Below, one piece after another: positions 3,543 through 26,076 of a stretch of DNA of 64,000 nt (position 1 is its first letter; each line of letters starts with the position of its first letter). The notes under the pieces were generated by a model. The model searched no databases, had not been told where the DNA came from, and was given only the letters and a program-made list of their open reading frames with translations. The DNA lies in NCBI GenBank assembly GCA_030446465.1, contig JAUJNI010000001.1, positions 131,776 to 195,775 of the forward strand. Direction: 5' to 3'. The DNA comes from Actinomycetota bacterium. GTDB lineage: Bacteria; Actinomycetota; CADDZG01; WHSQ01. The translations under genes and the position numbers were made by a program.

Positions 3543-4379
3543 GTGAAGCTGCGTTGCAGGGATCGGTATCTGTCGCTCGAGAGCGCAGTCGTCATGGGGG
3601 TGCTCAACGTTACGCCCGACTCCTTTTCCGATGGGGGTCTTTGGCTCGACTCTGAACGAGCGGTTGAGCACGGCGTCGAGATGGTCGAGCAGGGGGCCTC
3701 CATAGTCGATGTCGGTGGTGAGTCGACGAGGCCTGGAGCCGAGCCCGTGCCCCTCGAAGAAGAGCTGCGAAGGGTGCTGCCGGTCGTCGAGGGTCTGAGC
3801 GGACAAATCGAAGAGCCCATCTCCATCGACACGCGCAAGCCGGAAGTGGCAAGGCGGGCCCTCGATGTTGGCGCTTCAATCGTCAACGACACGACGGGCG
3901 AGATGGCGGATCGTTCGATGGACGAGATCGTTGCTCAATCGGGCGCCGCCGTCGTCGTCATGCACTCGCGCGGAACTCCCGAGACGATGCGGCAGCTCAC
4001 CGAGTACGCAGATGTGGTGGCCGACGTCTCGAGCTTCCTTAGAGGCCGGGCCGAGCAACTCGAGTCCATCGGGATCGAGCGGGAGTCGGTCTGCCTGGAC
4101 CCGGGGATCGGCTTTGCAAAGTCCGCAGACCAAAACCTTCAGTTGATCAACCGGGTCGACGAGCTTGTTGCGCTCGGTTATCCGATTGCCATCGGAACCT
4201 CACGGAAGTCCTTCATCGGTCGAGTGCTGGGCCTCTCGGTCGACCAGCGAACCGAGGCGACCTCGGCGACCGCGGCCTGGTCGGTGTCGAAGGGCGCGCG
4301 CATAGTGCGGGCGCACGACGTCGAGCCTGTCGTACGAACCATTCGCATGATCGAAGCCATTCAGTCGGCGGGGCGGTAG
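3543..4379 (+). CDS. folP: Dihydropteroate synthase
   Basis: Joins 6-hydroxymethyl-dihydropterin pyrophosphate to p-aminobenzoate; this enzyme is the sulfonamide target. The 278-aa protein has the N-terminal signature MGVLNVTPDSFSDGG, the pterin-site region VDVGGESTRPGA, the loop SIDTRKPEVARRA and the C-terminal GTSRKSFIG motif. The start is GTG 3543, 33 nt after folE. It ends 2 nt before folB, indicating translational coupling. Confidence 0.97.
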   Translation: MKLRCRDRYLSLESAVVMGVLNVTPDSFSDGGLWLDSERAVEHGVEMVEQGASIVDVGGESTRPGAEPVPLEEELRRVLPVVEGLSGQIEEPISIDTRKPEVARRALDVGASIVNDTTGEMADRSMDEIVAQSGAAVVVMHSRGTPETMRQLTEYADVVADVSSFLRGRAEQLESIGIERESVCLDPGIGFAKSADQNLQLINRVDELVALGYPIAIGTSRKSFIGRVLGLSVDQRTEATSATAAWSVSKGARIVRAHDVEPVVRTIRMIEAIQSAGR

Positions 4380-4381
4380 CG

Positions 4382-4735
4382 GTGGACGCGATCACCATCA
4401 CGGGCCTGCGCCTGGAGGCACGCATCGGTGTGACCGAACAAGAGCGATCTCACCCTCAATCCGTACTCGTGTCGTTGCATATAGACGCCGATCTCAGTCG
4501 GGCGAGAGCGACAGACGATCTCGCCGATACCGTCGATTATCACCAGGTCGTAAGAGAAATCGCCGAATTGGTCAGGTCGAGCAACGTGCGTCTGCTCGAG
4601 CACCTTGGTGAGAAAATAGCCGGACGCATTTCACGGATGGACGGTGTCTCGGGCGTTACGGTAGAGATCGCGAAGGAGTCACCTCCAGTTGAAGAGGATG
4701 TCGCGGCGATCAGCGTCAAGGTGGAAAAGCGGTGA
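4382..4735 (+). CDS. folB: Dihydroneopterin aldolase
   Basis: Converts dihydroneopterin to 6-hydroxymethyl-dihydropterin in folate synthesis. The 117-aa product opens with the family pattern ITITGLRLEARIGVTEQER, has the DTVDYHQVVREI segment around residue 55, and ends with the VTVEIAKESPP strand typical of FolB. GTG start at 4382, two bases after the folP stop. It overlaps the start region of folK by 4 nt (GTGA). Confidence 0.96.
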   Translation: MDAITITGLRLEARIGVTEQERSHPQSVLVSLHIDADLSRARATDDLADTVDYHQVVREIAELVRSSNVRLLEHLGEKIAGRISRMDGVSGVTVEIAKESPPVEEDVAAISVKVEKR

Positions 4736-4746
4736 GCGGGGACGCC

Positions 4747-5232
4747 ATGTCAAAGGCCTACATAGGGATCGGGTCCAACGTCGGCGATCGGGCATCCTTC
4801 TGCCGGCGAGCCGTCGCCGCGCTCGATGAAGCTGCCGGGGTCAGCGTCGAGAAGGCCTCGAGTCTCTACGAGACCACGCCGGTCGGAGGCCCCCCACAGA
4901 GATCCTTTGTCAATCTCGTAGCCCGTGTCTCCACCGGTCTCGCTCCTCAAGACCTCCTCGGGACATGCAAGGTGATCGAGAGGCGATTGGGCCGAGAAGC
5001 CTCCGAGATCAGATGGGGGCCCAGAGTCATCGACCTCGACGTCTTGCTGTACGACGACGAGAAGATCAACGAGCCCGGCCTCGAGATCCCTCACCCCCGC
5101 CTCGTGCAACGCCGTTTTGTCATGGTGCCGTTGCTGGAGATCGATCCCGGAGCAAGCGACCCCTGGGGTGCTCGATATGCGGACTGGGTCGACGAGGGTG
5201 AGGGTGAAGTGCGCCTCCTCGAGCCTTTCTAG
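4747..5232 (+). CDS. folK: 6-hydroxymethyl-7,8-dihydropterin pyrophosphokinase
   Basis: Transfers pyrophosphate from ATP to hydroxymethyl-dihydropterin, giving the FolP substrate. Typical features are the N-terminal AYIGIGSNVGDR and the catalytic RWGPRVIDLDVLLYDD motif. GTG 4732 overlaps the folB stop (GTGA) and would add five residues. ATG 4747 gives the usual family N-terminus (MSKAYIGIGSN) and is preferred, but coupling at 4732 cannot be excluded. Last gene of the folate cluster. Confidence 0.96.
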   Translation: MSKAYIGIGSNVGDRASFCRRAVAALDEAAGVSVEKASSLYETTPVGGPPQRSFVNLVARVSTGLAPQDLLGTCKVIERRLGREASEIRWGPRVIDLDVLLYDDEKINEPGLEIPHPRLVQRRFVMVPLLEIDPGASDPWGARYADWVDEGEGEVRLLEPF

Positions 5233-5345
5233 CCTGACTAAGCCCTGCGGCCTCTTCTGCCGATAGAACCTTGGCAGGAATAGCTCCTCTCATTCGGGGG
5301 TTACCAACTGCCTAGGGGTTGTCCTCGTCTAGCGGGAGAGTGCGT

Positions 5346-7022
5346 TTGAAGAGATATGCGCTGGGTGTGCTGCTCCTGGCTCTGTCCGGTGTGATGGCGG
5401 CAGCAATGCCTGCCGGCGCTGCCCCCGCGCCACGCCATTCACAGGTCCAACTGACCCCCGCGCACAATGATGCTCTGACCAGGGCCCTGAAGACCGGGAG
5501 GCTCACAAAGGCGGAGTATTCGCTTCAGAGGGCAAAGACGCTGTTCCGGCTCGACGAGGTAAGAGACCGCTTCGGGGCCGTAGCGCGGCCCGATCCCGAG
5601 GAGGCAACCTTCCTCCTGCGTGACTTGGCCCTCACAAAGATCGGGCTGTCTGGGCAGGCCCGTCGGGAGGCTCGTAGCCTGCTTGCCAGGCCCACCGACG
5701 GTGCTGCCGATCCCGTGGCCCTCGGGTACAGAACCTCAGAGGCCCCTCCGGTCTGCACTACAAACCTATGCATCCATTACGTGACTTCCACCTCCGATGC
5801 CCCCGACCCGACCGATAACAACGGCAACGGGGTCCCCGACTACGTAGACGCCGCAAAGAACGTGTTTCAAAACGAGGTGTGGGCCACCGAGATCGGCGCC
5901 TATGGGTACCGCCCCCCGAAGTCGGATTCCTCTTCACCGAACAACGGAGGCAACGGCAAGATCGACATCTACCTCGCCGACGTTGGGGCCGATGGTCTCT
6001 ATGGGCTGTGCACCTCTGACGATCCGAATCTCGAAAACCCCTCGTACCCCTACTTCGACGCCTCCGCTTACTGCGTCGTCGACGACGACTTCGCCGCCGA
6101 CCAATACGGGGGCACGGCCACCGGCATTAGGGCCCTGCAGGTCACCGCGGCTCACGAGTTCTTTCACGCCATCCAGTTCGCCTACGACATCTCAGAGGAC
6201 GTGTGGTTCATGGAGAACACCGCGACGTGGGTGGAGGACGAGGTCTACGACGACATCAACGACAACTACCAGTACCTGCTGGCAAGTGCGCTGAGCAACC
6301 CTGCCAAGCCGCTCGATTACGGCGCCGACTTCTTCCAGTACGGCAACTGGATCTTCTTTCGGTTCTTGTCGGAGCACTTTGGTTCTTCATCGGTTCACGA
6401 CCCGAGCATCGTGAGGCAGGCGTGGGAGCAAGCAGATTCGGCGCCCGGCGGACCCGACCGCTACTCTCTCGAGGCCGTTCGAAAGGCCATCGGGAGTCGC
6501 GGGGAGTCGATAGCCGATGTGTTCGCTCACTTCGGGGCAGCGAACTTCAAGCCCCAGAGCTTCTACGAAGAGGGGACGAGCTACGCAGGCGTCGTAGGCC
6601 CCCCGCCTGTGAGCGGCAGCTTCGTTCTCGGGAGCTCCTCGACTAACACCGGCACGGTCACGAAGAGGCTCGATCACTTGAGCAATCGCTTCTTCGAGCT
6701 CAAGCCCGGCAGCGGAGTAAGCGATGGCGCGAGATTGAGGGTCGTCGTCGACGGCCCGCGGGCGAGCACCGCGCCGCGTGCCACCCTCGTGGTTGTCAAG
6801 ACGTCGGGGACCGTTCGAAAGAACCTGGTGCTGGATGCGGCAGGCGATGGGCGGACCTCGGTCTCTTTTTCTAAAGCGAGCGTGAAGAAGGTGGTGCTGG
6901 TTCTGACCAACGCAAGCACGCGCTACAACTGCTGGGTGAATGCAGACTCACCGTTCTCCTGCCGCGGCTTCTCCAAAGATGACGGCAGGACCTTCAGCTT
7001 CACCGCGCGCCTCCTTCAATAG
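5346..7022 (+). CDS. Secreted metalloprotease-like protein (MXAN_6640 type)
   Basis: The N-terminus has a clear signal peptide (basic KRYALG start, hydrophobic run, AxA-like cleavage near PAGAAPAP), so the product is exported. The central region carries AAHEFFHAIQFAYD, a gluzincin-style HExxH zinc motif, followed by WFMENTATWVEDEVYD with a likely third ligand. This arrangement matches the putative metalloproteases named after Myxococcus MXAN_6640. An Asp/Asn-rich stretch (DPTDNNGNGVPDYVD) resembles a calcium-binding loop. TTG 5346 is chosen because GGGAG lies about 7 nt upstream; GTG 5340 and TTG 5319 are alternatives. Substrate unknown. It stands between the folate and pantothenate operons. 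Confidence 0.8.
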   Translation: MKRYALGVLLLALSGVMAAAMPAGAAPAPRHSQVQLTPAHNDALTRALKTGRLTKAEYSLQRAKTLFRLDEVRDRFGAVARPDPEEATFLLRDLALTKIGLSGQARREARSLLARPTDGAADPVALGYRTSEAPPVCTTNLCIHYVTSTSDAPDPTDNNGNGVPDYVDAAKNVFQNEVWATEIGAYGYRPPKSDSSSPNNGGNGKIDIYLADVGADGLYGLCTSDDPNLENPSYPYFDASAYCVVDDDFAADQYGGTATGIRALQVTAAHEFFHAIQFAYDISEDVWFMENTATWVEDEVYDDINDNYQYLLASALSNPAKPLDYGADFFQYGNWIFFRFLSEHFGSSSVHDPSIVRQAWEQADSAPGGPDRYSLEAVRKAIGSRGESIADVFAHFGAANFKPQSFYEEGTSYAGVVGPPPVSGSFVLGSSSTNTGTVTKRLDHLSNRFFELKPGSGVSDGARLRVVVDGPRASTAPRATLVVVKTSGTVRKNLVLDAAGDGRTSVSFSKASVKKVVLVLTNASTRYNCWVNADSPFSCRGFSKDDGRTFSFTARLLQ

Positions 7023-18629: not shown

Positions 18630-21524
18630 ATGGATTTGCGGTTTTCTGCGGGGTTGGTCGTCGGCGTTCTCGTTATCGGTTCGGTGCTGGCGGTGGTCTA
18701 TCAAGCGTTGAGAAGACCGGTGCTTCGCAAGCTGGCGGTGCGTGACGCGGCTCGCCGGCCGAGTGAAACCCTTCTTGTCGTCGCCGGGAGCCTGCTAGGC
18801 ACGGCCTTGATCACAGGAAGCCTCATCGTCGGCGACACGCTCGACTCATCGATCCGAGCCTCTGCCACCACACAGCTCGGCCCGGTCGATGAGGTGCTGG
18901 TCACGGCCGATGCGGCTCAGGGCCACAGCATCGAGAAGCAAATCGAAGCCATCGATACCAACGACATCGATGGGGTCATGTCCTTGGTGACGGCTCCGGC
19001 GGCGATCGCATCGGGTTCTCGCTCCGACTCGCTGGCAGAGCCCTCGGCGCAGGTGATCGAGGCCGATTTCGACGAGGCGAGAAGCTTCGGCGGAGACCCC
19101 GACGCCACCGGGATAACCGGCCCGACTCCCGCGAAGGGGCAGGTGGCAATTGGCGAAGACCTTGCTCGGACCCTCCGGGTCGAGAGCGGGGACGCGGTAA
19201 CCGGCTACCTCTATGGCGCCGAGCTGCGGCTCGAGGTGAGCAGGGTTCTTCCTCGCCGCGGCATCGCCGGTTTCTGGCGCAACGTGGGGACGACTTCCCC
19301 GAACGCATTCGTCAAGCCGGGAACGCTGGCATCGCTGGTCGGCGACAGGGAGACGAGGGATGCACTCCCTCCGCAGACTTCGGTGCTCGTGTCCAATCGA
19401 GGAGGTGTGGAGGAGGGGGCGGAGCTGACTTCTCGAGTCACGCGCTCCATCGAAAATGCGTTGGGCTCGAGCATCCCCGTGCGAGTCGAGCCGGCGAAAG
19501 AGGATCTTCTCGATGCGGCCGAGGAGCAAGGTCGCGAGTTCACCGAGCTGTTCGTAGCCATAGGCGCCTTTGCCATCGTGGCCGGCGTGCTGCTGCTGAT
19601 CAACATCTTCGTCATGCTTGCCGAAGAGCGAAAGTCTCAGCTCGGCATGTTGCGGGCGGTTGGCATGCGACGGGCCGACCTCGTCCGGGGCTTCATCATC
19701 GAAGGCACCCTCTACGCGCTGGTGGCCAGTGCAGTCGGCGCGGTGCTCGGCATCGGGGTCGGCTGGGCGATCGTCAAGCTGGCGGCCCCCATCTTTAGCG
19801 CCGGCGGGGATTTTGCCCTCGAGCTGGCTTTCTCCGCCGAGCCTGCGAGCATGGTCAGTGGGTTCTGCGTCGGCCTTTTGATATCTCTTGCGAGCATCGC
19901 AGCCACCAGCGTGCGCATCAGCCGTATCAACATCATCGGTGCCATTCGCGACCTTCCCGAGACGCGCACGCCGCAGGGCCGCAAGCGGACACTCATCGCC
20001 GGCTTGCTTCTCGCCGCCTTCGGCGCAGCGATGCTCGCGGTTGGGCTCAACGACGAGCGCGCATGGTTGCCTGCAATCATCGGTCCGCCCGCAATCGCTT
20101 TCGGCTGTCTGCCGCTTCTGACGCGCCTCATCGGAAGGCGCACCAGCGTGCTGCTTGCCGCGGGGACATCCCTGTTCTGGGGGGTCTTTGGGAACGCCAT
20201 CACCGACGGCCACTTCTTCGAGAGCGGCGAGATCTTTGCATTCGTGGTTCAGGGCGTGTTGTTGACCTTTTCCGCCGTCATCCTGCTGAGCCAGAGTCAC
20301 GAGACCTTTGGCGGGTTCCTACGCAAAGTCGCAGCCCGCCGCCTCTCCTTGCGTCTGGGCCTTGCTTATCCCCTGGCCCGAAGATTTCGAACCGGACTGA
20401 CGCTAGGGATGTATTCACTGGTCGTTTTCACAATGGTCTTTCTCTCCTCGATGTCTGCGTCGTTCATGGGGCAGGTCGAGAGCTTTACCGCCAAGGAAGC
20501 CGGAGGGTTCGACCTGATCGTGGACGCCAGTCAGTCGAATCCCCCGAGGGTCGGCGCCCTGGGCTCCGCCGAGGATGTGAGCCAGGTGGCTGCTCTCTTC
20601 CACGGCCAGGCGCTCTACCAGCCAGAGGATTTTCCAGAACCCGAGCCGTGGCCCATAACGGGCGCCAGCTCAAAGTTGGTGGAGGTCGGTCCGCCGGCCC
20701 TCGAAGAGCGCGCGGAAGGATTCGACAGCAACAAGGAAGTTTGGTCGGAGCTTCTCGAGGATCCGAAGACCGTGGTGGTGAACAACTTCTTCCTGCAAGC
20801 GGGCGGTGGCCCTCCCGAAGGCATCGTCGACGTTGGAGACGTGATGAAGGTGGTTGACCCGGTGACGGGTTCGTCCGTCGAGCGCAAGGTGATCGGTGTG
20901 CTCGCATCCGACTCGACTCTCGCGGGGGCTTTTATGTCCCAAGAGTCGGTGGCAGAGATCCTTGGCGAGCGGGCCGTAACCGCCCGGTTCTACGTGACGG
21001 TTGCGGGTTCCGAGGCCCAGGCGCGCGCCACCGGCGTGCAGATGCAGGGGCGCTTCGTCCGCAATGGTGTGGAAGCGCAGACCTTCGAAGAGCTTGTCGA
21101 AGAGCAATTCAACCTTCAGCTTCAGTTCTTCAACCTGATGCAGGGTTACCTGGCGTTGGGCCTGCTGGTCGGTATAGCCGGTCTCGGTGTCGTCATGATC
21201 CGTTCGGTGAGAGAAAGGCGCCGGGAGATCGGGGTGCTTCGGTCGTTGGGGTTTGTCTCACCCAAGGTGCGAATCGCTTTTCTGCTCGAGTCCGGATTCG
21301 TCGCCCTCGAGGGCATCCTCGTCGGGTCGATCCTGGCGCTCGTCACAGCGTCACAGCTGATGGCGCATGGGGACTTCGGCGAGGGCATCTCCTTCACGAT
21401 CCCATGGCTGAATGTCCTGATACTGACCTCCTCGGCAATGGTCGCGTCGCTGGTTGCGACCGCGTGGCCGGCGCAGCAGGCGTCCGCGATCCCCCCTGCG
21501 GTGGCGCTGCGAGTGGCCGACTGA
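18630..21524 (+). CDS. FtsX-like ABC transporter permease, large
   Basis: The 964-aa membrane protein has two FtsX domains. An N-terminal helix (about residues 7-28) and a large extracytoplasmic domain precede three helices near 310-430, starting FVAIGAFAIVAGVLLLINIFVM. A middle block of helices at about 455-620 includes AGLLLAAFGAAMLAVGLNDE. A second extracytoplasmic domain is followed by the last three helices at about 830-950 (YLALGLLVGIAGLGVVMI). The ExRRREIGVLRSLG-like loops are typical. The double-domain architecture matches export or envelope-remodelling transporters of the MacB superfamily. Translated with the ATPase gene. Confidence 0.9.
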   Translation: MDLRFSAGLVVGVLVIGSVLAVVYQALRRPVLRKLAVRDAARRPSETLLVVAGSLLGTALITGSLIVGDTLDSSIRASATTQLGPVDEVLVTADAAQGHSIEKQIEAIDTNDIDGVMSLVTAPAAIASGSRSDSLAEPSAQVIEADFDEARSFGGDPDATGITGPTPAKGQVAIGEDLARTLRVESGDAVTGYLYGAELRLEVSRVLPRRGIAGFWRNVGTTSPNAFVKPGTLASLVGDRETRDALPPQTSVLVSNRGGVEEGAELTSRVTRSIENALGSSIPVRVEPAKEDLLDAAEEQGREFTELFVAIGAFAIVAGVLLLINIFVMLAEERKSQLGMLRAVGMRRADLVRGFIIEGTLYALVASAVGAVLGIGVGWAIVKLAAPIFSAGGDFALELAFSAEPASMVSGFCVGLLISLASIAATSVRISRINIIGAIRDLPETRTPQGRKRTLIAGLLLAAFGAAMLAVGLNDERAWLPAIIGPPAIAFGCLPLLTRLIGRRTSVLLAAGTSLFWGVFGNAITDGHFFESGEIFAFVVQGVLLTFSAVILLSQSHETFGGFLRKVAARRLSLRLGLAYPLARRFRTGLTLGMYSLVVFTMVFLSSMSASFMGQVESFTAKEAGGFDLIVDASQSNPPRVGALGSAEDVSQVAALFHGQALYQPEDFPEPEPWPITGASSKLVEVGPPALEERAEGFDSNKEVWSELLEDPKTVVVNNFFLQAGGGPPEGIVDVGDVMKVVDPVTGSSVERKVIGVLASDSTLAGAFMSQESVAEILGERAVTARFYVTVAGSEAQARATGVQMQGRFVRNGVEAQTFEELVEEQFNLQLQFFNLMQGYLALGLLVGIAGLGVVMIRSVRERRREIGVLRSLGFVSPKVRIAFLLESGFVALEGILVGSILALVTASQLMAHGDFGEGISFTIPWLNVLILTSSAMVASLVATAWPAQQASAIPPAVALRVAD

Positions 21525-21734: not shown

Positions 21735-22250
21735 TTACTCCTGTTCCTTCTCGGAACGTAGGTGCTTTACCAGGATCGTGAGATGCGCTGCGTCCTTCTC
21801 GCGACCCGCGGCGCGCTTTGAGCGCGTGATGTCCTCGAGGGACGCAACAGGAATCTTCACTCCCCCGCGTTCCAGCACATGAGCGTTCTGGGCGAGATCG
21901 TCGTAGCCGGTCGTTCCGTCCGGAACGAAGGAGATGTCGAAGGGACCGAAACGGGTCACGAACGTCATCGTCGTTATGCCCGTGAACGTCCGCTCATCGA
22001 GCGCAATCTCCATGGGTTCGTCCAGCCCCGGTGCCCTCAGTTTCCCTCCCAAATCATGCAGGGCCGCACCGAGACGTTTCTTGTTCGCGGGGTCCGAGGC
22101 CGGCGTGATGTCGATGTCGGCCGTACGCGGCAAAGGAACCCCCTGCAGAAGCGCGGCGAGGCCTCCGATCACCACGTACTTGACCTTGTGATCGTTGAGC
22201 ACCGCCGTTATGCGTTCGAAGGCGACCGGCGTGAGGTCGGGCTTGTTCAT
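21735..22250 (-). CDS. Nucleotidyltransferase-like protein (AbiEii/MNT-type), candidate toxin-type partner
   Basis: The 171-aa product carries the polymerase-beta nucleotidyltransferase signature: GG at residues 29-30 (VVIGGLAALLQG) and the metal-binding Asp pair at 45 and 47 (ADIDI), with a third carboxylate near 105 (FDISF). The C-terminus has ASLEDITRSKRAAGREKD, typical of actinobacterial single-domain relatives of AbiEii/DUF6036 proteins. Its ATG overlaps the stop of the upstream XRE gene (ATGA), so the pair is translated together. The pairing resembles type IV or MNT-style toxin-antitoxin modules, but its function is inferred. Confidence 0.75.
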   Translation of the reverse strand: MNKPDLTPVAFERITAVLNDHKVKYVVIGGLAALLQGVPLPRTADIDITPASDPANKKRLGAALHDLGGKLRAPGLDEPMEIALDERTFTGITTMTFVTRFGPFDISFVPDGTTGYDDLAQNAHVLERGGVKIPVASLEDITRSKRAAGREKDAAHLTILVKHLRSEKEQE

Positions 22251-22612
22251 TTGGCCGTCCTAGCCGCAGCCTTTCGGACTGATTTCTCCCCCAGAGCCTG
22301 CTCCAAGAGCTCACGATCCCGCTTTCGCCACTCCTTAACGACGCTCGGAGGCAGGGCCGCCTCATAACGAGCTAGCCACTCGTCGTGGTCGTCAACGGCT
22401 TCAAGCCGGATACGCATGTCCCGGCCCGCTGCCCGGACGATGCGAGCGAGCGTGTCGAAGGTCGGCGAACGCTTCCCCGACTCGTAAGCAGCAATGGCCG
22501 CCTGTGACGTGCCTGCACGCTGGGCGAGACCGCGTTGCGACAGCCCGCTGTCGTGACGCGCGAGACGAATGAGATTTCCAGCCCAGGTAGCCACCCTCGG
22601 ACGATATCGCAT
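22247..22612 (-). CDS. XRE-family helix-turn-helix protein
   Basis: The 121-aa DNA-binding protein has a Cro/CI-type helix-turn-helix at about residues 12-66 (LIRLARHDSGLSQRGLAQRA, then TSQAAIAAYESGKRSPTFDTL). The C-terminal tail is charged and helical, rich in Arg, Lys and Ala. ATG 22612 is the longest start; a GTG about six codons in, at VATWAGNL, would give a shorter product. It is the first gene of a two-gene minus-strand operon with the nucleotidyltransferase and probably autoregulates it. A CGATATCG palindrome lies at the start region and could be an operator. Confidence 0.75.
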   Translation of the reverse strand: MRYRPRVATWAGNLIRLARHDSGLSQRGLAQRAGTSQAAIAAYESGKRSPTFDTLARIVRAAGRDMRIRLEAVDDHDEWLARYEAALPPSVVKEWRKRDRELLEQALGEKSVRKAAARTAK

Positions 22613-22719
22613 CCGATGTCATTAGCCGACACGCATCAACGTCACCTCAAATCAAGACCATCGAATTGGATGCGACCTTGAGCATCGCTTCCAGTTCGGC
22701 GGCAGCACGCAGTCTTCCG

Positions 22720-22984
22720 CAATCGTTTTAGGTCCGACGAGGCGGCCGAGGCGGTGCGCAGATACTCGGCAATGATCGCCACTGTCCGCTCCCGAGGTCG
22801 AGTGACGATCGCGGTAGCGATCAACCGATAACGGGTTGATCGCGAACGCATGGTAGGCAGCGACGAGGAGAGCATTGACCAGTAGCCCACGGTCCAGTTC
22901 GATTCCCACGACAGCCTCATCGGGCTCCCCGACATGAGCTGCCACCATTTCGTGCAGCTTGGCGTGGGGATATCTAGCTGCCAT
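22720..22984 (-). pseudogene. IS110-family transposase remnant
   Basis: The minus frame from 22984 reads HAKLHEMVAAHVGEPDEAVVG, then GLLVNALLVAAYHAFAINPLSVDRYRDRHSTSG. This is the characteristic IS110 (DEDD transposase) stretch that normally continues into SGAKSDxxDAxVLAxxLRTD. Here the frame breaks after SGA, and the continuation AIIAEYLRTA appears in another frame (about 22740-22780). Both the N-terminal DEDD part and the C-terminal transposase part are missing, so the element is truncated, frameshifted and inactive. It marks past insertion in this accessory region. Confidence 0.7.
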
Positions 22985-23026: not shown

Positions 23027-23518
23027 ATGAGCGTCAGAGCCGCGGCAGAGCTTGAACTCGTGCGGCATGAAGTGCTCGCGGACATCGAACGCTGGTTACC
23101 GGAGGTTGGTCCGGACGTTCGTTCCACCCTTTGGCATGGAGTCTTTATGAAAGCCGCCAAACAAACGGACCGCCTGTTTCAGCTCTGTGTAGATGTTGCG
23201 ATCCACCTTGCCGGGCCTGCGGCTCCAGAAGCGGTCGCAATCGTCAGCAGAGGAAAGCCTTCTGAGCGCCTTACTATGGGCGAACGAATGGACGTGCTCA
23301 AGACTCTTGACCGGCAACGAGCCATTGCTGTGGAAAGAAAAATCATCGGCAAGACCGACCGGCAGCTACTTGAAGATCTGACGATTCTACGGAACAACTT
23401 CGCACACGGCAGCATCCCGAGCGGCGAAGGACCTGAGCAGACTCAACGTTTTCTCGAGCTTGCGCGTCAATTCTGCGAGACGCAGCTCGTCCAGACCCTT
23501 GCAAAAGCGCATGTCTAG
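23027..23518 (+). CDS. HEPN-like hypothetical protein
   Basis: The 163-aa, mostly helical product contains RNNFAH at residues 122-127. This matches the Rx4-6H catalytic motif of HEPN ribonuclease-type domains, in the expected setting at the end of a helix (LEDLTILRNNFAHGS). No membrane segment or signal is seen. The motif match is direct; the family assignment is inferred, since Rx4H can occur by chance. It overlaps the next gene by 8 nt, so the two are co-translated. Many HEPN proteins act in toxin-antitoxin or anti-phage systems with a modifying partner. Confidence 0.6.
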   Translation: MSVRAAAELELVRHEVLADIERWLPEVGPDVRSTLWHGVFMKAAKQTDRLFQLCVDVAIHLAGPAAPEAVAIVSRGKPSERLTMGERMDVLKTLDRQRAIAVERKIIGKTDRQLLEDLTILRNNFAHGSIPSGEGPEQTQRFLELARQFCETQLVQTLAKAHV

Positions 23519-23936
23519 CGAAATCGGGTTCCCAGACGGAACAGTTGTTCGCGCCTCCAGTGTCGCCTCACGTGACGAAAATGGTGCCTGGCGCGAGTTC
23601 GGTCTCTACCTCGACGCTAGCTGGCGCCCAGAGTGGCCGGCGGTGGTGCTGGATTGGCCTGACTTCGGTGTCCCCTCCTCGCGAGAGGATGCCGACCACC
23701 ACATTCAAAATGCGTTTGAGCTGGCGCGACAAGGAAAGAAGGTCGAGATTGGTTGCCTAGGCGGTATAGGTCGCACTGGGACTGTTCTCGCTTGCATGGC
23801 GGTCTTAGCCGGCGTGTCGACCAATGAGTCCGTGAGATGGGTGAGGCGCAACTATTCGCCCTATGCCGTGGAAGAACCCGAACAAGAGGAATGGGTCCGA
23901 CAGTTCGCAGCACGTTGCCGCTACAACGGCGACTGA
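23511..23936 (+). CDS. Protein-tyrosine-phosphatase-fold protein
   Basis: The 141-aa product has both catalytic elements of the PTP/dual-specificity fold: the WPD loop (W49-P50-D51 in LDWPDFGVP) and the P-loop C82-x5-R88 (GCLGGIGRTG). The usual His before the catalytic Cys is Gly here. It should therefore bind phosphate and probably hydrolyse phosphoesters; the substrate could be protein, nucleotide or RNA end. ATG 23511 overlaps the HEPN-like gene stop at 23516-23518; the frame extends upstream to 23460 without similarity. The overlap implies a joint function with the HEPN-like protein. Confidence 0.75.
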   Translation: MSSEIGFPDGTVVRASSVASRDENGAWREFGLYLDASWRPEWPAVVLDWPDFGVPSSREDADHHIQNAFELARQGKKVEIGCLGGIGRTGTVLACMAVLAGVSTNESVRWVRRNYSPYAVEEPEQEEWVRQFAARCRYNGD

Positions 23937-24100: not shown

Positions 24101-24664
24101 TCAGTCCTTGATTTCCATGAAGGCGTCCGCCACCTCATAGAACCGGTCTAGCTCCTGGCGGGGAATCTCGCCTGACAGCACGAAATAAAGCTTCTTGCCG
24201 TTGCGATCCTTGATCCTGATCTGGGTGAGCTTGGGACCGAAGGTGGGGGCCCGGTGCAGGCGCGTCCGTGTCTGGGTCAGCTCGCGAGCGCGGGTGGGCG
24301 TCCCCTTGAGACTCCTGGCTTGAACCGAACGAGCTCCCCTGAGGCCGATCTTTCGAACCCGTCCCACCGCATTGCGGAAGATCAAGATGCCGTCGGAACG
24401 CACCTCGAGCCGAGCGCTTGCCTGTGCCTTGTCCACCAGCCGGGTGCCGCCGTACAAAAGGGCCACCAGGACGATCCCAGAACCAATCGACAGGAGGAGC
24501 ACGGGGAGGTTCTCATCGCGCGTGAAAGCAATGACCGAGAAGACGACGATGGCCAGTAGAAGCACCCCCAGCAAGGTCGAGAAAGTCTTGGAGAAGGTCG
24601 GCTGCGGTCGAAAAGAAAACACGACGTCGCTCGAGTCCTCGGTTGTCACAAGGGAAGAAGGCAT
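24101..24664 (-). CDS. Membrane protein with two N-terminal helices, hypothetical
   Basis: The 187-aa protein has two adjacent membrane segments at about residues 29-47 and 54-72, a PH-like pattern after them (ARLEVRSDGILIFRNAVGRVRKIGL), and a cytoplasmic C-terminus rich in basic residues. The architecture resembles small bacterial bPH-type membrane proteins, but I cannot name the family. It is divergent from radA, with 68 nt between starts, so both promoters share that gap. Confidence 0.7.
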   Translation of the reverse strand: MPSSLVTTEDSSDVVFSFRPQPTFSKTFSTLLGVLLLAIVVFSVIAFTRDENLPVLLLSIGSGIVLVALLYGGTRLVDKAQASARLEVRSDGILIFRNAVGRVRKIGLRGARSVQARSLKGTPTRARELTQTRTRLHRAPTFGPKLTQIRIKDRNGKKLYFVLSGEIPRQELDRFYEVADAFMEIKD

Positions 24665-24732
24665 CGACTAATTGTTGTCCAACTCCGGCGAAAAGTTGCA
24701 AAGATGTCGCACACCGTCCCTATTGTCGCGGC

Positions 24733-26076
24733 ATGAGCTCATCGCCCCCTAAACAACGGGATCTGCACGCGTGCTCGGCATGCGGATTCGATTCGCCAAG
24801 GTGGTTTGGACGCTGCCCCGACTGTGGCGAGTGGAGCAGCGCCGTGGCGGCCCCCGTGCCCCAGCTCGACCAGCTAGAGGTGACTACCCTTGCTGCGCCC
24901 GGACAGGCACCGGAACGCTTTTCCACCGGCGTCGTCGAGGTGGACCGCGTCCTTGGCGGCGGACTCGTCCCCGGAGGGGTCGTGTTGCTCTCGGGGGAGC
25001 CGGGGATCGGCAAATCCACCTTGGTGCTGCAGCTCATCGACGGCGTGCTTACGGCCGGTCGGCGGGCCCTTCTCGTTACCGCGGAAGAATCAGTTGGCCA
25101 GGTCTCTTTGAGGGGCGCTCGGCTCGGCGTGGCACTCGACCGCTTCGAGGTCGCCGCGTCTTCATCCGTGACCGCCGCCATTGCCGCCTCCGAGCGAAGG
25201 GCACCCGATCTCCTCGTGATCGACTCGATCCAGACGCTTGAAGACCCCACCCTGGATCAATCTGCTGGATCGGTGGCGCAAGTGCGGGAATGTGCGTCGC
25301 GTCTGGTTCGGCATGCCAAGGTCAGTGGAACGGCGGTCGTCCTCGTGGGCCACGTAACCAAGGAGGGCGTGGTCGCCGGCCCCAAGACGCTCGAGCATGT
25401 CGTCGATGCGGTTCTAGCCCTCGAGGGTGAACGCACGGGCACTCTCCGGCTGCTACGGGCATCGAAGAACCGTTTCGGCTCCTGTGACGAGACCGGGGTG
25501 TTCGTCATGGGACAGCGGGGACTGGATGCGGTCGAGGACCCCTCCGCCATGTTCCTTGCCGACCGGCGGGCGGACGTGTCTGGATCCGTCGTCTTTCCCG
25601 GGCTCGAGGGGTTGCGGCCCGTGCTGGTCGAGCTACAGGCCCTTGTGTCGCCCAGTGACCTGGCACAGCCCAGACGGGTACCGCTCGGCATCGACGCCAG
25701 GCGACTGTCGCTGTTGCTCGGTGTTCTTGGCGAACGCGCCGGGGTGCTGCTGGGTCGCAAGGATGTCTTTATAGCGGCGGCCGGAGGCTTGGCGGTTCGA
25801 GAACCGGCCGCCGACCTAGCCGTGTGCATGTCGCTGTATTCGGCCGTTCATGACATCGCCATCGGTGGAGGCGTCGTAGCTCTCGGCGAGGTCGGCCTTG
25901 GTGGTGAGGTGCGGCGTGTCCCGGGGGCCGAGCGCAGGCTTGCAGAGGCGGCTCGACTCGGCTTTCGAACAGCGCTGGTTCCCCGAGGCACAAAGACGGA
26001 AGCAGCTCTCGAGCTGATTCCGATCGGGGACCTTACATCCGCCCTGCATGCCGCGTGCCCCACCGCGCCGGCGTGA
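24733..26076 (+). CDS. radA: DNA repair protein RadA (Sms)
   Basis: RecA-like ATPase that helps branch migration in recombinational repair. The N-terminal zinc finger CSACGFDSPRWFGRCPDC is followed by a RecA core with Walker A GEPGIGKST and Walker B LLVIDSIQT. The RadA-specific KNRFG motif is present (ASKNRFGSCDETG). A C-terminal Lon-protease-like domain contains the LPGGEVGLGGEVR-type segment (read as ALGEVGLGGEVRRVPG). ATG 24733 gives the usual short leader before the zinc finger; the frame extends upstream without similarity. It starts the radA-carD-isp block. Confidence 0.96.
   Translation: MSSSPPKQRDLHACSACGFDSPRWFGRCPDCGEWSSAVAAPVPQLDQLEVTTLAAPGQAPERFSTGVVEVDRVLGGGLVPGGVVLLSGEPGIGKSTLVLQLIDGVLTAGRRALLVTAEESVGQVSLRGARLGVALDRFEVAASSSVTAAIAASERRAPDLLVIDSIQTLEDPTLDQSAGSVAQVRECASRLVRHAKVSGTAVVLVGHVTKEGVVAGPKTLEHVVDAVLALEGERTGTLRLLRASKNRFGSCDETGVFVMGQRGLDAVEDPSAMFLADRRADVSGSVVFPGLEGLRPVLVELQALVSPSDLAQPRRVPLGIDARRLSLLLGVLGERAGVLLGRKDVFIAAAGGLAVREPAADLAVCMSLYSAVHDIAIGGGVVALGEVGLGGEVRRVPGAERRLAEAARLGFRTALVPRGTKTEAALELIPIGDLTSALHAACPTAPA

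What the first reader, a model, noticed from the sequence alone, without database searches (positions are those of the whole stretch)
23027..23936. HEPN-like and tyrosine-phosphatase-like gene pair, overlapping and in an accessory island
The first gene has an Rx4H motif (R122 to H127) in a HEPN-like helix context. The second has a complete PTP active site: WPD loop (W49-D51) and C82-x5-R88. The reading frames overlap by 8 nt, which is typical of two-protein systems. Known HEPN modules pair with nucleotidyltransferases or kinases; a phosphatase partner would be a different way to control a HEPN ribonuclease, or the phosphatase could be the effector acting on an RNA end or nucleotide. The neighbourhood (IS110 remnant, XRE/nucleotidyltransferase pair) is typical of defence or toxin-antitoxin loci. 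The motifs are seen; the system is inferred.
Basis: partly seen in the sequence, partly recalled or inferred. Interest (0 to 1): 0.65.

Follow-up and report, generated by a model that had tools for sequence, protein, structure and literature searches.

The report
Orphan HEPN-like gene beside common phosphatase
Two small overlapping genes in an accessory island encode an orphan protein with a probable RNA-cutting (HEPN-like) motif and an ordinary bacterial cysteine phosphatase; the phosphatase is common and occurs without such a partner in about 40 related loci checked, so there is no evidence that they form a new two-part system.

Summary
In detail: two same-strand genes overlap by 8 nt. The first has R122-NNFA-H127 in a HEPN-like setting. 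The second has WPD (W49-D51) and C82-x5-R88. The interpretation as a HEPN/phosphatase system does not hold. The second protein is a small DUSP23/Tk-PTP-type phosphatase (AlphaFold pLDDT 92; best PDB fold matches DUSP23 and Tk-PTP), found in 46 of 397 Actinomycetota genomes. In about 40 distinct loci carrying a relative (down to about 30% identity), no neighbouring ORF resembles the first protein or credibly carries the extended HEPN motif. The first protein has no credible homologue in 24 genomes of its class, 397 of its phylum, 395 Actinomycetes, a GTDB pattern scan, IMG/VR, plasmids or phages. Its HEPN assignment rests on the motif and three sub-threshold Pfam matches; its single-sequence model (pLDDT 44) is uninformative. 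The pair lies in a roughly 3 kb FtsX-RadA insert, with an XRE/nucleotidyltransferase pair and an IS110 remnant, that three relatives with the same flanks lack. Most likely: an orphan HEPN-like (possibly RNase) gene and a stand-alone phosphatase gene juxtaposed in an accessory insertion, perhaps co-transcribed. A lineage-restricted functional module is not excluded (about 10%).

The parts
23027..23518 (+). 163-aa orphan HEPN-like protein; R122-N-N-F-A-H127-G motif; predicted all-helical; possible metal-independent RNase
   Evidence: ORF; weak sub-threshold Pfam matches DUF4209 E=0.0043, HEPN_Swt1 E=0.012, RiboL-PSP E=0.22, all at the motif region; no homologues found
23511..23936 (+). 141-aa small cysteine-based phosphatase (PTP/DSP fold), WPD loop W49-D51, C82-x5-R88, Q125 invariant; G81 where canonical PTPs have His
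   Evidence: Pfam Tc-R-P, PTP-SAK and Y_phosphatase above cut-offs; AlphaFold pLDDT 92 and Foldseek to DUSP23/Tk-PTP; alignment
22652..22984 (-). Degraded IS110-family transposase fragment (N-terminal DEDD part, frame-shifted)
   Evidence: tblastn to annotated IS110 transposases, 40-49% identity; PF01548 E=0.013
22247..22612 (-). XRE-type HTH regulator, first gene of the XRE/nucleotidyltransferase pair
   Evidence: HTH_3 E=3e-12
21735..22250 (-). DUF6036/aminoglycoside-adenylyltransferase-like nucleotidyltransferase, overlapping the XRE gene by 4 nt
   Evidence: PF19502 and PF10706 above cut-off; homologues in 84 of 297 Actinomycetota genomes
18630..21524 (+). Left flank of the accessory stretch: FtsX-like ABC permease
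   Evidence: PF02687 E=1.5e-27; conserved next to RadA in G032, G001 and G047
24643..26076 (+). Right flank: RadA-type DNA repair protein
   Evidence: homologues at 55-66% identity in most other genomes of the same family; synteny

Best explanation
This is an accessory insertion between FtsX and RadA holding unrelated small genes. The downstream gene encodes a stand-alone small phosphatase of a common actinobacterial family (DUSP23/Tk-PTP-like fold). It most likely removes phosphate from phosphotyrosine or a small phospho-metabolite through a C82 phospho-cysteine intermediate, with D51 as general acid and R88 binding the phosphate (the chemistry follows from the PTP family; the substrate is unknown). 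The upstream gene encodes an orphan helical protein with a HEPN-type RNxxxH site, plausibly a metal-independent RNase of selfish or defensive type (inferred, not shown). The genes are at most co-transcribed; the 8-nt overlap is ordinary prokaryotic operon packing and does not show a shared function.
For: Phosphatase relatives occur in 46 of 397 Actinomycetota genomes and in 15 GTDB loci (three of them the same loci as). Adjacent genes differ each time: TetR, DUF2461, L,D-transpeptidase, aminotransferase V (with rpsI/rplM-like genes on the other side) and amidohydrolase. A maximum-sensitivity phmmer with the HEPN-like protein and an extended-motif scan over 1,372 ORFs of these loci found nothing credible (the two motif hits lie in long minus-strand frames that read as antisense translations). 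The HEPN-like protein has no credible homologue. The PTP fold is confident (pLDDT 92; best matches DUSP23 2img/4erc and Tk-PTP 5z59/5z5a). The FtsX-RadA interval is free of the pair in the three relatives with both flanks adjacent. GC3 is 0.585 and 0.627 for the pair against 0.71-0.77 for FtsX, RadA and CysS.
Against: The overlap and shared low GC3 fit co-acquisition as one unit. Because the first gene is an orphan, absence of co-conservation cannot refute a very young or lineage-restricted module. One distant precedent exists for a HEPN gene next to a phosphatase-bearing gene (Fuscovulum pRsa). Many of the PTP loci have only 1.5 kb of flank.
Confidence: 0.75

Rival explanations
1. A lineage-restricted HEPN/phosphatase two-gene module: the HEPN protein is an RNase toxin or effector and the PTP controls it (by dephosphorylating it or a host factor) or processes the RNA ends or nucleotides it makes.
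For: 8-nt overlap and same strand; accessory island with an IS110 remnant; both active-site motifs intact; low GC3 in both genes.
Against: No conserved pairing in about 40 phosphatase loci; the phosphatase is widespread alone; no second copy of the HEPN-like protein anywhere searched; no kinase seen among the adjacent genes whose action the phosphatase would reverse.
Confidence: 0.1
2. A fragment or derivative of ADP-ribosylglycohydrolase (ARG)-centred defence systems, in which a rhodanese-phosphatase-superfamily domain fused to or next to ARG further processes released ADP-ribose; HEPN genes can sit in such loci.
For: PMC9503650 describes ARG plus R-P phosphatase systems. Distant plasmid relatives of this phosphatase lie in proteins annotated as ARG (the PTP-ARG fusion is confirmed by Pfam for one), and in Fuscovulum pRsa the order is WYL / PTP-ARG / HEPN / PD-(D/E)XK.
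Against: No ARG (PF03747) anywhere in this genome; no WYL or Nudix regulator among the genes examined next to the pair. The Fuscovulum HEPN protein resembles P0001 only over 55 residues at the motif, and none of its five relatives sampled sits beside a phosphatase annotation. The Leisingera ARG locus has no HEPN gene next to the ARG gene.
Confidence: 0.05
3. The first protein is not a HEPN domain at all, only an orphan helical protein with a chance RNNFAHG string; the pair is a trivial operon. (This is compatible with the best explanation for the phosphatase; it differs only on the first gene.)
For: Bare Rx4H has a 38% chance in shuffles; all Pfam HEPN-type matches are below cut-off; no homologues; model uninformative; the Ex3[KR] acidic motif of many HEPN families (PMC3710099) is absent upstream of the motif.
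Against: The extended RN-x-hydrophobic-A-H-G form is rare in shuffles (0.1%). The residue after R is N, as PMC3710099 says is typical. Three HEPN or HEPN-like profiles align at the same place. The motif lies at the end of a predicted helix (low confidence).
Confidence: 0.35
4. The HEPN-like gene was the partner of the divergent nucleotidyltransferase (a HEPN/NT module split by the IS110 insertion), and the phosphatase is a bystander.
For: Nucleotidyltransferase and HEPN-like genes lie about 0.8 kb apart with the IS110 remnant between them; HEPN/MNT modules are abundant (PMC7641770 abstract).
Against: The nucleotidyltransferase already has an overlapping XRE partner on the opposite strand. It is a DUF6036/aminoglycoside-adenylyltransferase type, common in the phylum, whereas no homologue of the HEPN-like protein was found in any genome searched.
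Confidence: 0.04

Closest known systems
Small PTP-fold phosphatases: human DUSP23 (VHZ, PDB 2img/4erc), Thermococcus Tk-PTP (5z59/5z5a) and Sulfolobus SsoPTP (2i6i)
   Same: Fold (Foldseek E about 1e-7 to 1e-6, TM about 0.7), WPD-type loop, Cx5R loop, single-domain size
   Different: About 23-30% identity; Gly (G81) instead of His before the catalytic Cys; substrate unknown
Pfam PTP-SAK (PF22784) and Tc-R-P (PF22785) DSP-PTPase phosphatase families
   Same: Above gathering score (28.6 vs 27 and 29.2 vs 27 bits)
   Different: Stand-alone here; not fused to polymorphic-toxin or 'Swiss Army Knife' modules
Actinobacterial 'protein-tyrosine phosphatase family protein' (Streptomyces, Pseudonocardia, Saccharothrix, Nitriliruptoraceae)
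   Same: About 40-64% identity over most of the length
   Different: No HEPN-like neighbour in any locus examined
HEPN RNases, Swt1-like/Abi2 clade and HepT of HEPN/MNT modules
   Same: RNxxxH motif at the end of a predicted helix
   Different: Sub-threshold profile scores; no Ex3[KR] motif upstream; no co-directional MNT, kinase or restriction partner; no homologues
ARG-centred systems with R-P phosphatases (PMC9503650)
   Same: Distantly related phosphatase domain; one plasmid locus (L085) also has a HEPN gene
   Different: No ARG in this genome

Membership tests
PTP/DSP cysteine phosphatases | Cx5R phosphate-binding loop | tested here: met
   C82-LGGIG-R88, invariant C82 and R88 in 14 sequences
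PTP/DSP cysteine phosphatases | WPD loop with general-acid Asp | tested here: met
   W49-P50-D51; W49 and D51 invariant
PTP/DSP cysteine phosphatases | His immediately before the catalytic Cys (HCx5R) | tested here: not met
   G81 here; G or A (V in one) in the homologues read. A subfamily variation; the fold and the rest of the site are kept
PTP/DSP cysteine phosphatases | PTP fold | tested here: met
   AlphaFold pLDDT 92, Foldseek prob 1.00 to DUSP23 and Tk-PTP
PTP/DSP cysteine phosphatases | Phosphatase activity | not testable with these tools
   needs biochemistry
HEPN superfamily | Rx4-6H motif with a polar residue after R | tested here: met
   R122-N-N-F-A-H127
HEPN superfamily | Profile match above curated threshold | tested here: not met
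   Best 17.5 bits against cut-off 22.3 (DUF4209); HEPN_Swt1 16.3 against 27.5
HEPN superfamily | Four-helix HEPN fold | tested here: inconclusive
   all-helical but pLDDT 44; Foldseek no match at E <= 0.001
HEPN superfamily | Upstream acidic Ex3[KR] motif (present in many, not all, families) | tested here: not met
   only E137-x3-R, downstream of the motif
HEPN-partner two-gene module (TA-like) | Conserved co-occurrence of the two genes | tested here: not met
   0 of about 40 PTP loci have a HEPN-like neighbour; the HEPN-like protein was found only at this locus
HEPN/MNT toxin-antitoxin | Adjacent MNT antitoxin gene in the same operon | tested here: not met
   the adjacent co-directional gene is a PTP; the nucleotidyltransferase is divergent and paired with XRE
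ARG-centred R-P phosphatase systems | ADP-ribosylglycohydrolase gene coupled to the phosphatase | tested here: not met
   no PF03747 match in the genome

The most novel reading that the evidence does not exclude
A lineage-restricted toxin-antitoxin-like module in which a cysteine phosphatase controls, or works downstream of, a HEPN ribonuclease.
Probability: 0.08. Interest if true: 0.65.

Novelty: new member of a known kind. Interest (0 to 1): 0.22.

Why it matters
If the pair were a real module, it would add phosphatases to the ways HEPN RNases are regulated. As it stands, it shows that an overlapping gene pair in an island should not be read as a system without co-conservation. It also gives an orphan HEPN-like candidate and describes a common but apparently uncharacterised actinobacterial small-PTP clade with Gly/Ala-Cys instead of His-Cys.

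Tried and rejected
Homologue searches for the first protein: 24 class genomes (two weak hits at E 0.014 and 0.057; the first lies antisense to a gene that reads as ribosomal protein L31, the second is a weak partial match inside a 603-aa signalling-type protein); 397 phylum genomes (self only); 395 Actinomycetes genomes (six hits at E 2e-4 to 0.0096, partial alignments without the motif, judged spurious); GTDB and IMG/VR pattern scans, plasmids and phages (none). Single-sequence AlphaFold of the first protein: uninformative; the Foldseek run on it gave no match at E <= 0.001. ARG-system idea: rejected for this locus because the genome has no ARG. Promoter, terminator and Rfam scans: nothing above expectation. 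Repeats: no flanking direct repeat that would define an element boundary. Literature search for a HEPN/tyrosine-phosphatase pairing found none. The HEPN survey PMC3710099 uses 'phosphatase' once, for PglZ in Pgl operons that also carry a HEPN gene, which is a different phosphatase.

Full report
OBSERVATION. The motif positions are correct. The bare Rx4H motif is not informative by itself: it appears in 38% of shuffles of this protein, and a second Rx4H (R32-H37) is also present. The extended string RNNFAHG is rare in shuffles (0.1%), although that pattern was chosen after seeing the protein. The phosphatase signature is significant.

SECOND GENE. Pfam places it above cut-off in Tc-R-P, PTP-SAK and Y_phosphatase. 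With 13 homologues as alignment, AlphaFold gives pLDDT 92. The best solved structures are human DUSP23 and archaeal Tk-PTP and SsoPTP (Foldseek E about 1e-7 to 1e-6, TM about 0.7; also by sequence). C82, R88, W49, D51 and Q125 are invariant in 14 sequences. The one departure is G81 (G or A, V in one, in the relatives read) in place of the canonical His before the Cys. The phosphatase is therefore a well-supported, ordinary small PTP. Relatives occur in 46 of 397 Actinomycetota genomes, 15 GTDB loci including Nitriliruptoraceae, Pseudonocardia, Saccharothrix and a Thermomicrobiaceae MAG, 21 plasmids and 42 phages.

CO-OCCURRENCE. About 40 distinct loci with a phosphatase relative were inspected. 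The genes beside it differ from lineage to lineage; those named by Pfam are a TetR regulator, DUF2461, L,D-transpeptidase, class V aminotransferase and an amidohydrolase, and in the closest class relative (L034, 64% identity) the phosphatase lies alone between the aminotransferase gene and ribosomal genes that read as rpsI and rplM. Maximum-sensitivity phmmer of the first protein against all ORFs of these loci, and an extended HEPN motif scan of 1,372 ORFs, gave nothing credible. Limits: the loci from the genome search carry only 1.5 kb on each side, and a strongly diverged HEPN without the motif would be missed.

FIRST GENE. No credible homologue was found in its own class (24 genomes), its phylum (397), Actinomycetes (395), GTDB and IMG/VR pattern scans (close relatives only), plasmids or phages. 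The weak hits I inspected were antisense or partial alignments without the motif. HEPN membership is suggested by the RNxxxH string and by three sub-threshold profiles aligned at that string: DUF4209 E=0.0043, HEPN_Swt1 E=0.012, HEPN_RiboL-PSP E=0.22. It is not established: the single-sequence AlphaFold model has pLDDT 44, Foldseek on it found nothing at E <= 0.001, and the upstream Ex3[KR] motif of many HEPN families (PMC3710099) is absent.

ISLAND. In the three relatives where an FtsX permease and RadA are neighbours (G032, G001, G047), the interval lacks both genes. In the window the interval holds an XRE/nucleotidyltransferase pair, a frame-shifted IS110 remnant, the two genes of the finding and a small protein of unknown family (24101-24664). 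Third-position GC of the two genes (0.585, 0.627) is below that of FtsX, RadA and CysS (0.71-0.77). The stretch is therefore accessory. The nucleotidyltransferase family is common in the phylum (84 of 297 genomes).

A PRECEDENT, AND WHY IT DOES NOT CARRY OVER. Distant plasmid relatives of the phosphatase lie in proteins annotated as ADP-ribosylglycohydrolase (the fusion is confirmed by Pfam for the Fuscovulum protein), matching the ARG-centred systems of PMC9503650. In Fuscovulum blasticum pRsa a HEPN gene follows such a fusion. That HEPN protein matches P0001 only over 55 residues at the motif. Five of its relatives that I sampled have other neighbours and no phosphatase annotation. This genome has no ARG gene.

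MECHANISM. Most likely two independent functions. Shown: a complete PTP catalytic site on a confident PTP fold, and the extended RNNFAHG motif in an orphan protein. Inferred from family knowledge: phospho-cysteine catalysis by C82 with D51 and R88 for the phosphatase; for the first protein, if it is HEPN, metal-independent cleavage leaving 2',3'-cyclic phosphate (PMC3710099). Not shown: expression, activity, interaction, or any role in defence.

VERDICT. Observation confirmed; interpretation as a HEPN/phosphatase system not supported by co-occurrence; low interest.

Noticed in passing
L085 (Fuscovulum blasticum pRsa NZ_CP020471.1:58264-66503): A HEPN gene (5289-6077) directly follows a PTP-SAK/ADP-ribosylglycohydrolase fusion (3851-5284), with a WYL regulator upstream and a PD-(D/E)XK nuclease downstream: a HEPN component in an ARG-centred system. 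Five sampled relatives of this HEPN protein have no phosphatase annotation beside them.
   Followed up: partly
phrog_17568; NC_042082.1 and NC_016567.1: PHROG 17568 and some RefSeq phage records call this PTP family 'thymidylate synthase', although the GenBank copy of the same DLP_5 phage calls it a tyrosine phosphatase; this looks like a propagated misannotation.
   Followed up: no
window 21735-22612 (-): XRE regulator and DUF6036-type nucleotidyltransferase overlapping by 4 nt, TA-like; the nucleotidyltransferase has homologues in 84 of 297 Actinomycetota genomes and two further matches in this genome.
   Followed up: partly
homologues of window 23511-23936, e.g. L034-L048: The actinobacterial small-PTP clade has Gly or Ala (Val in one read) in place of the near-universal His before the catalytic Cys, which may point to an unusual substrate or cysteine pKa.
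   Followed up: partly
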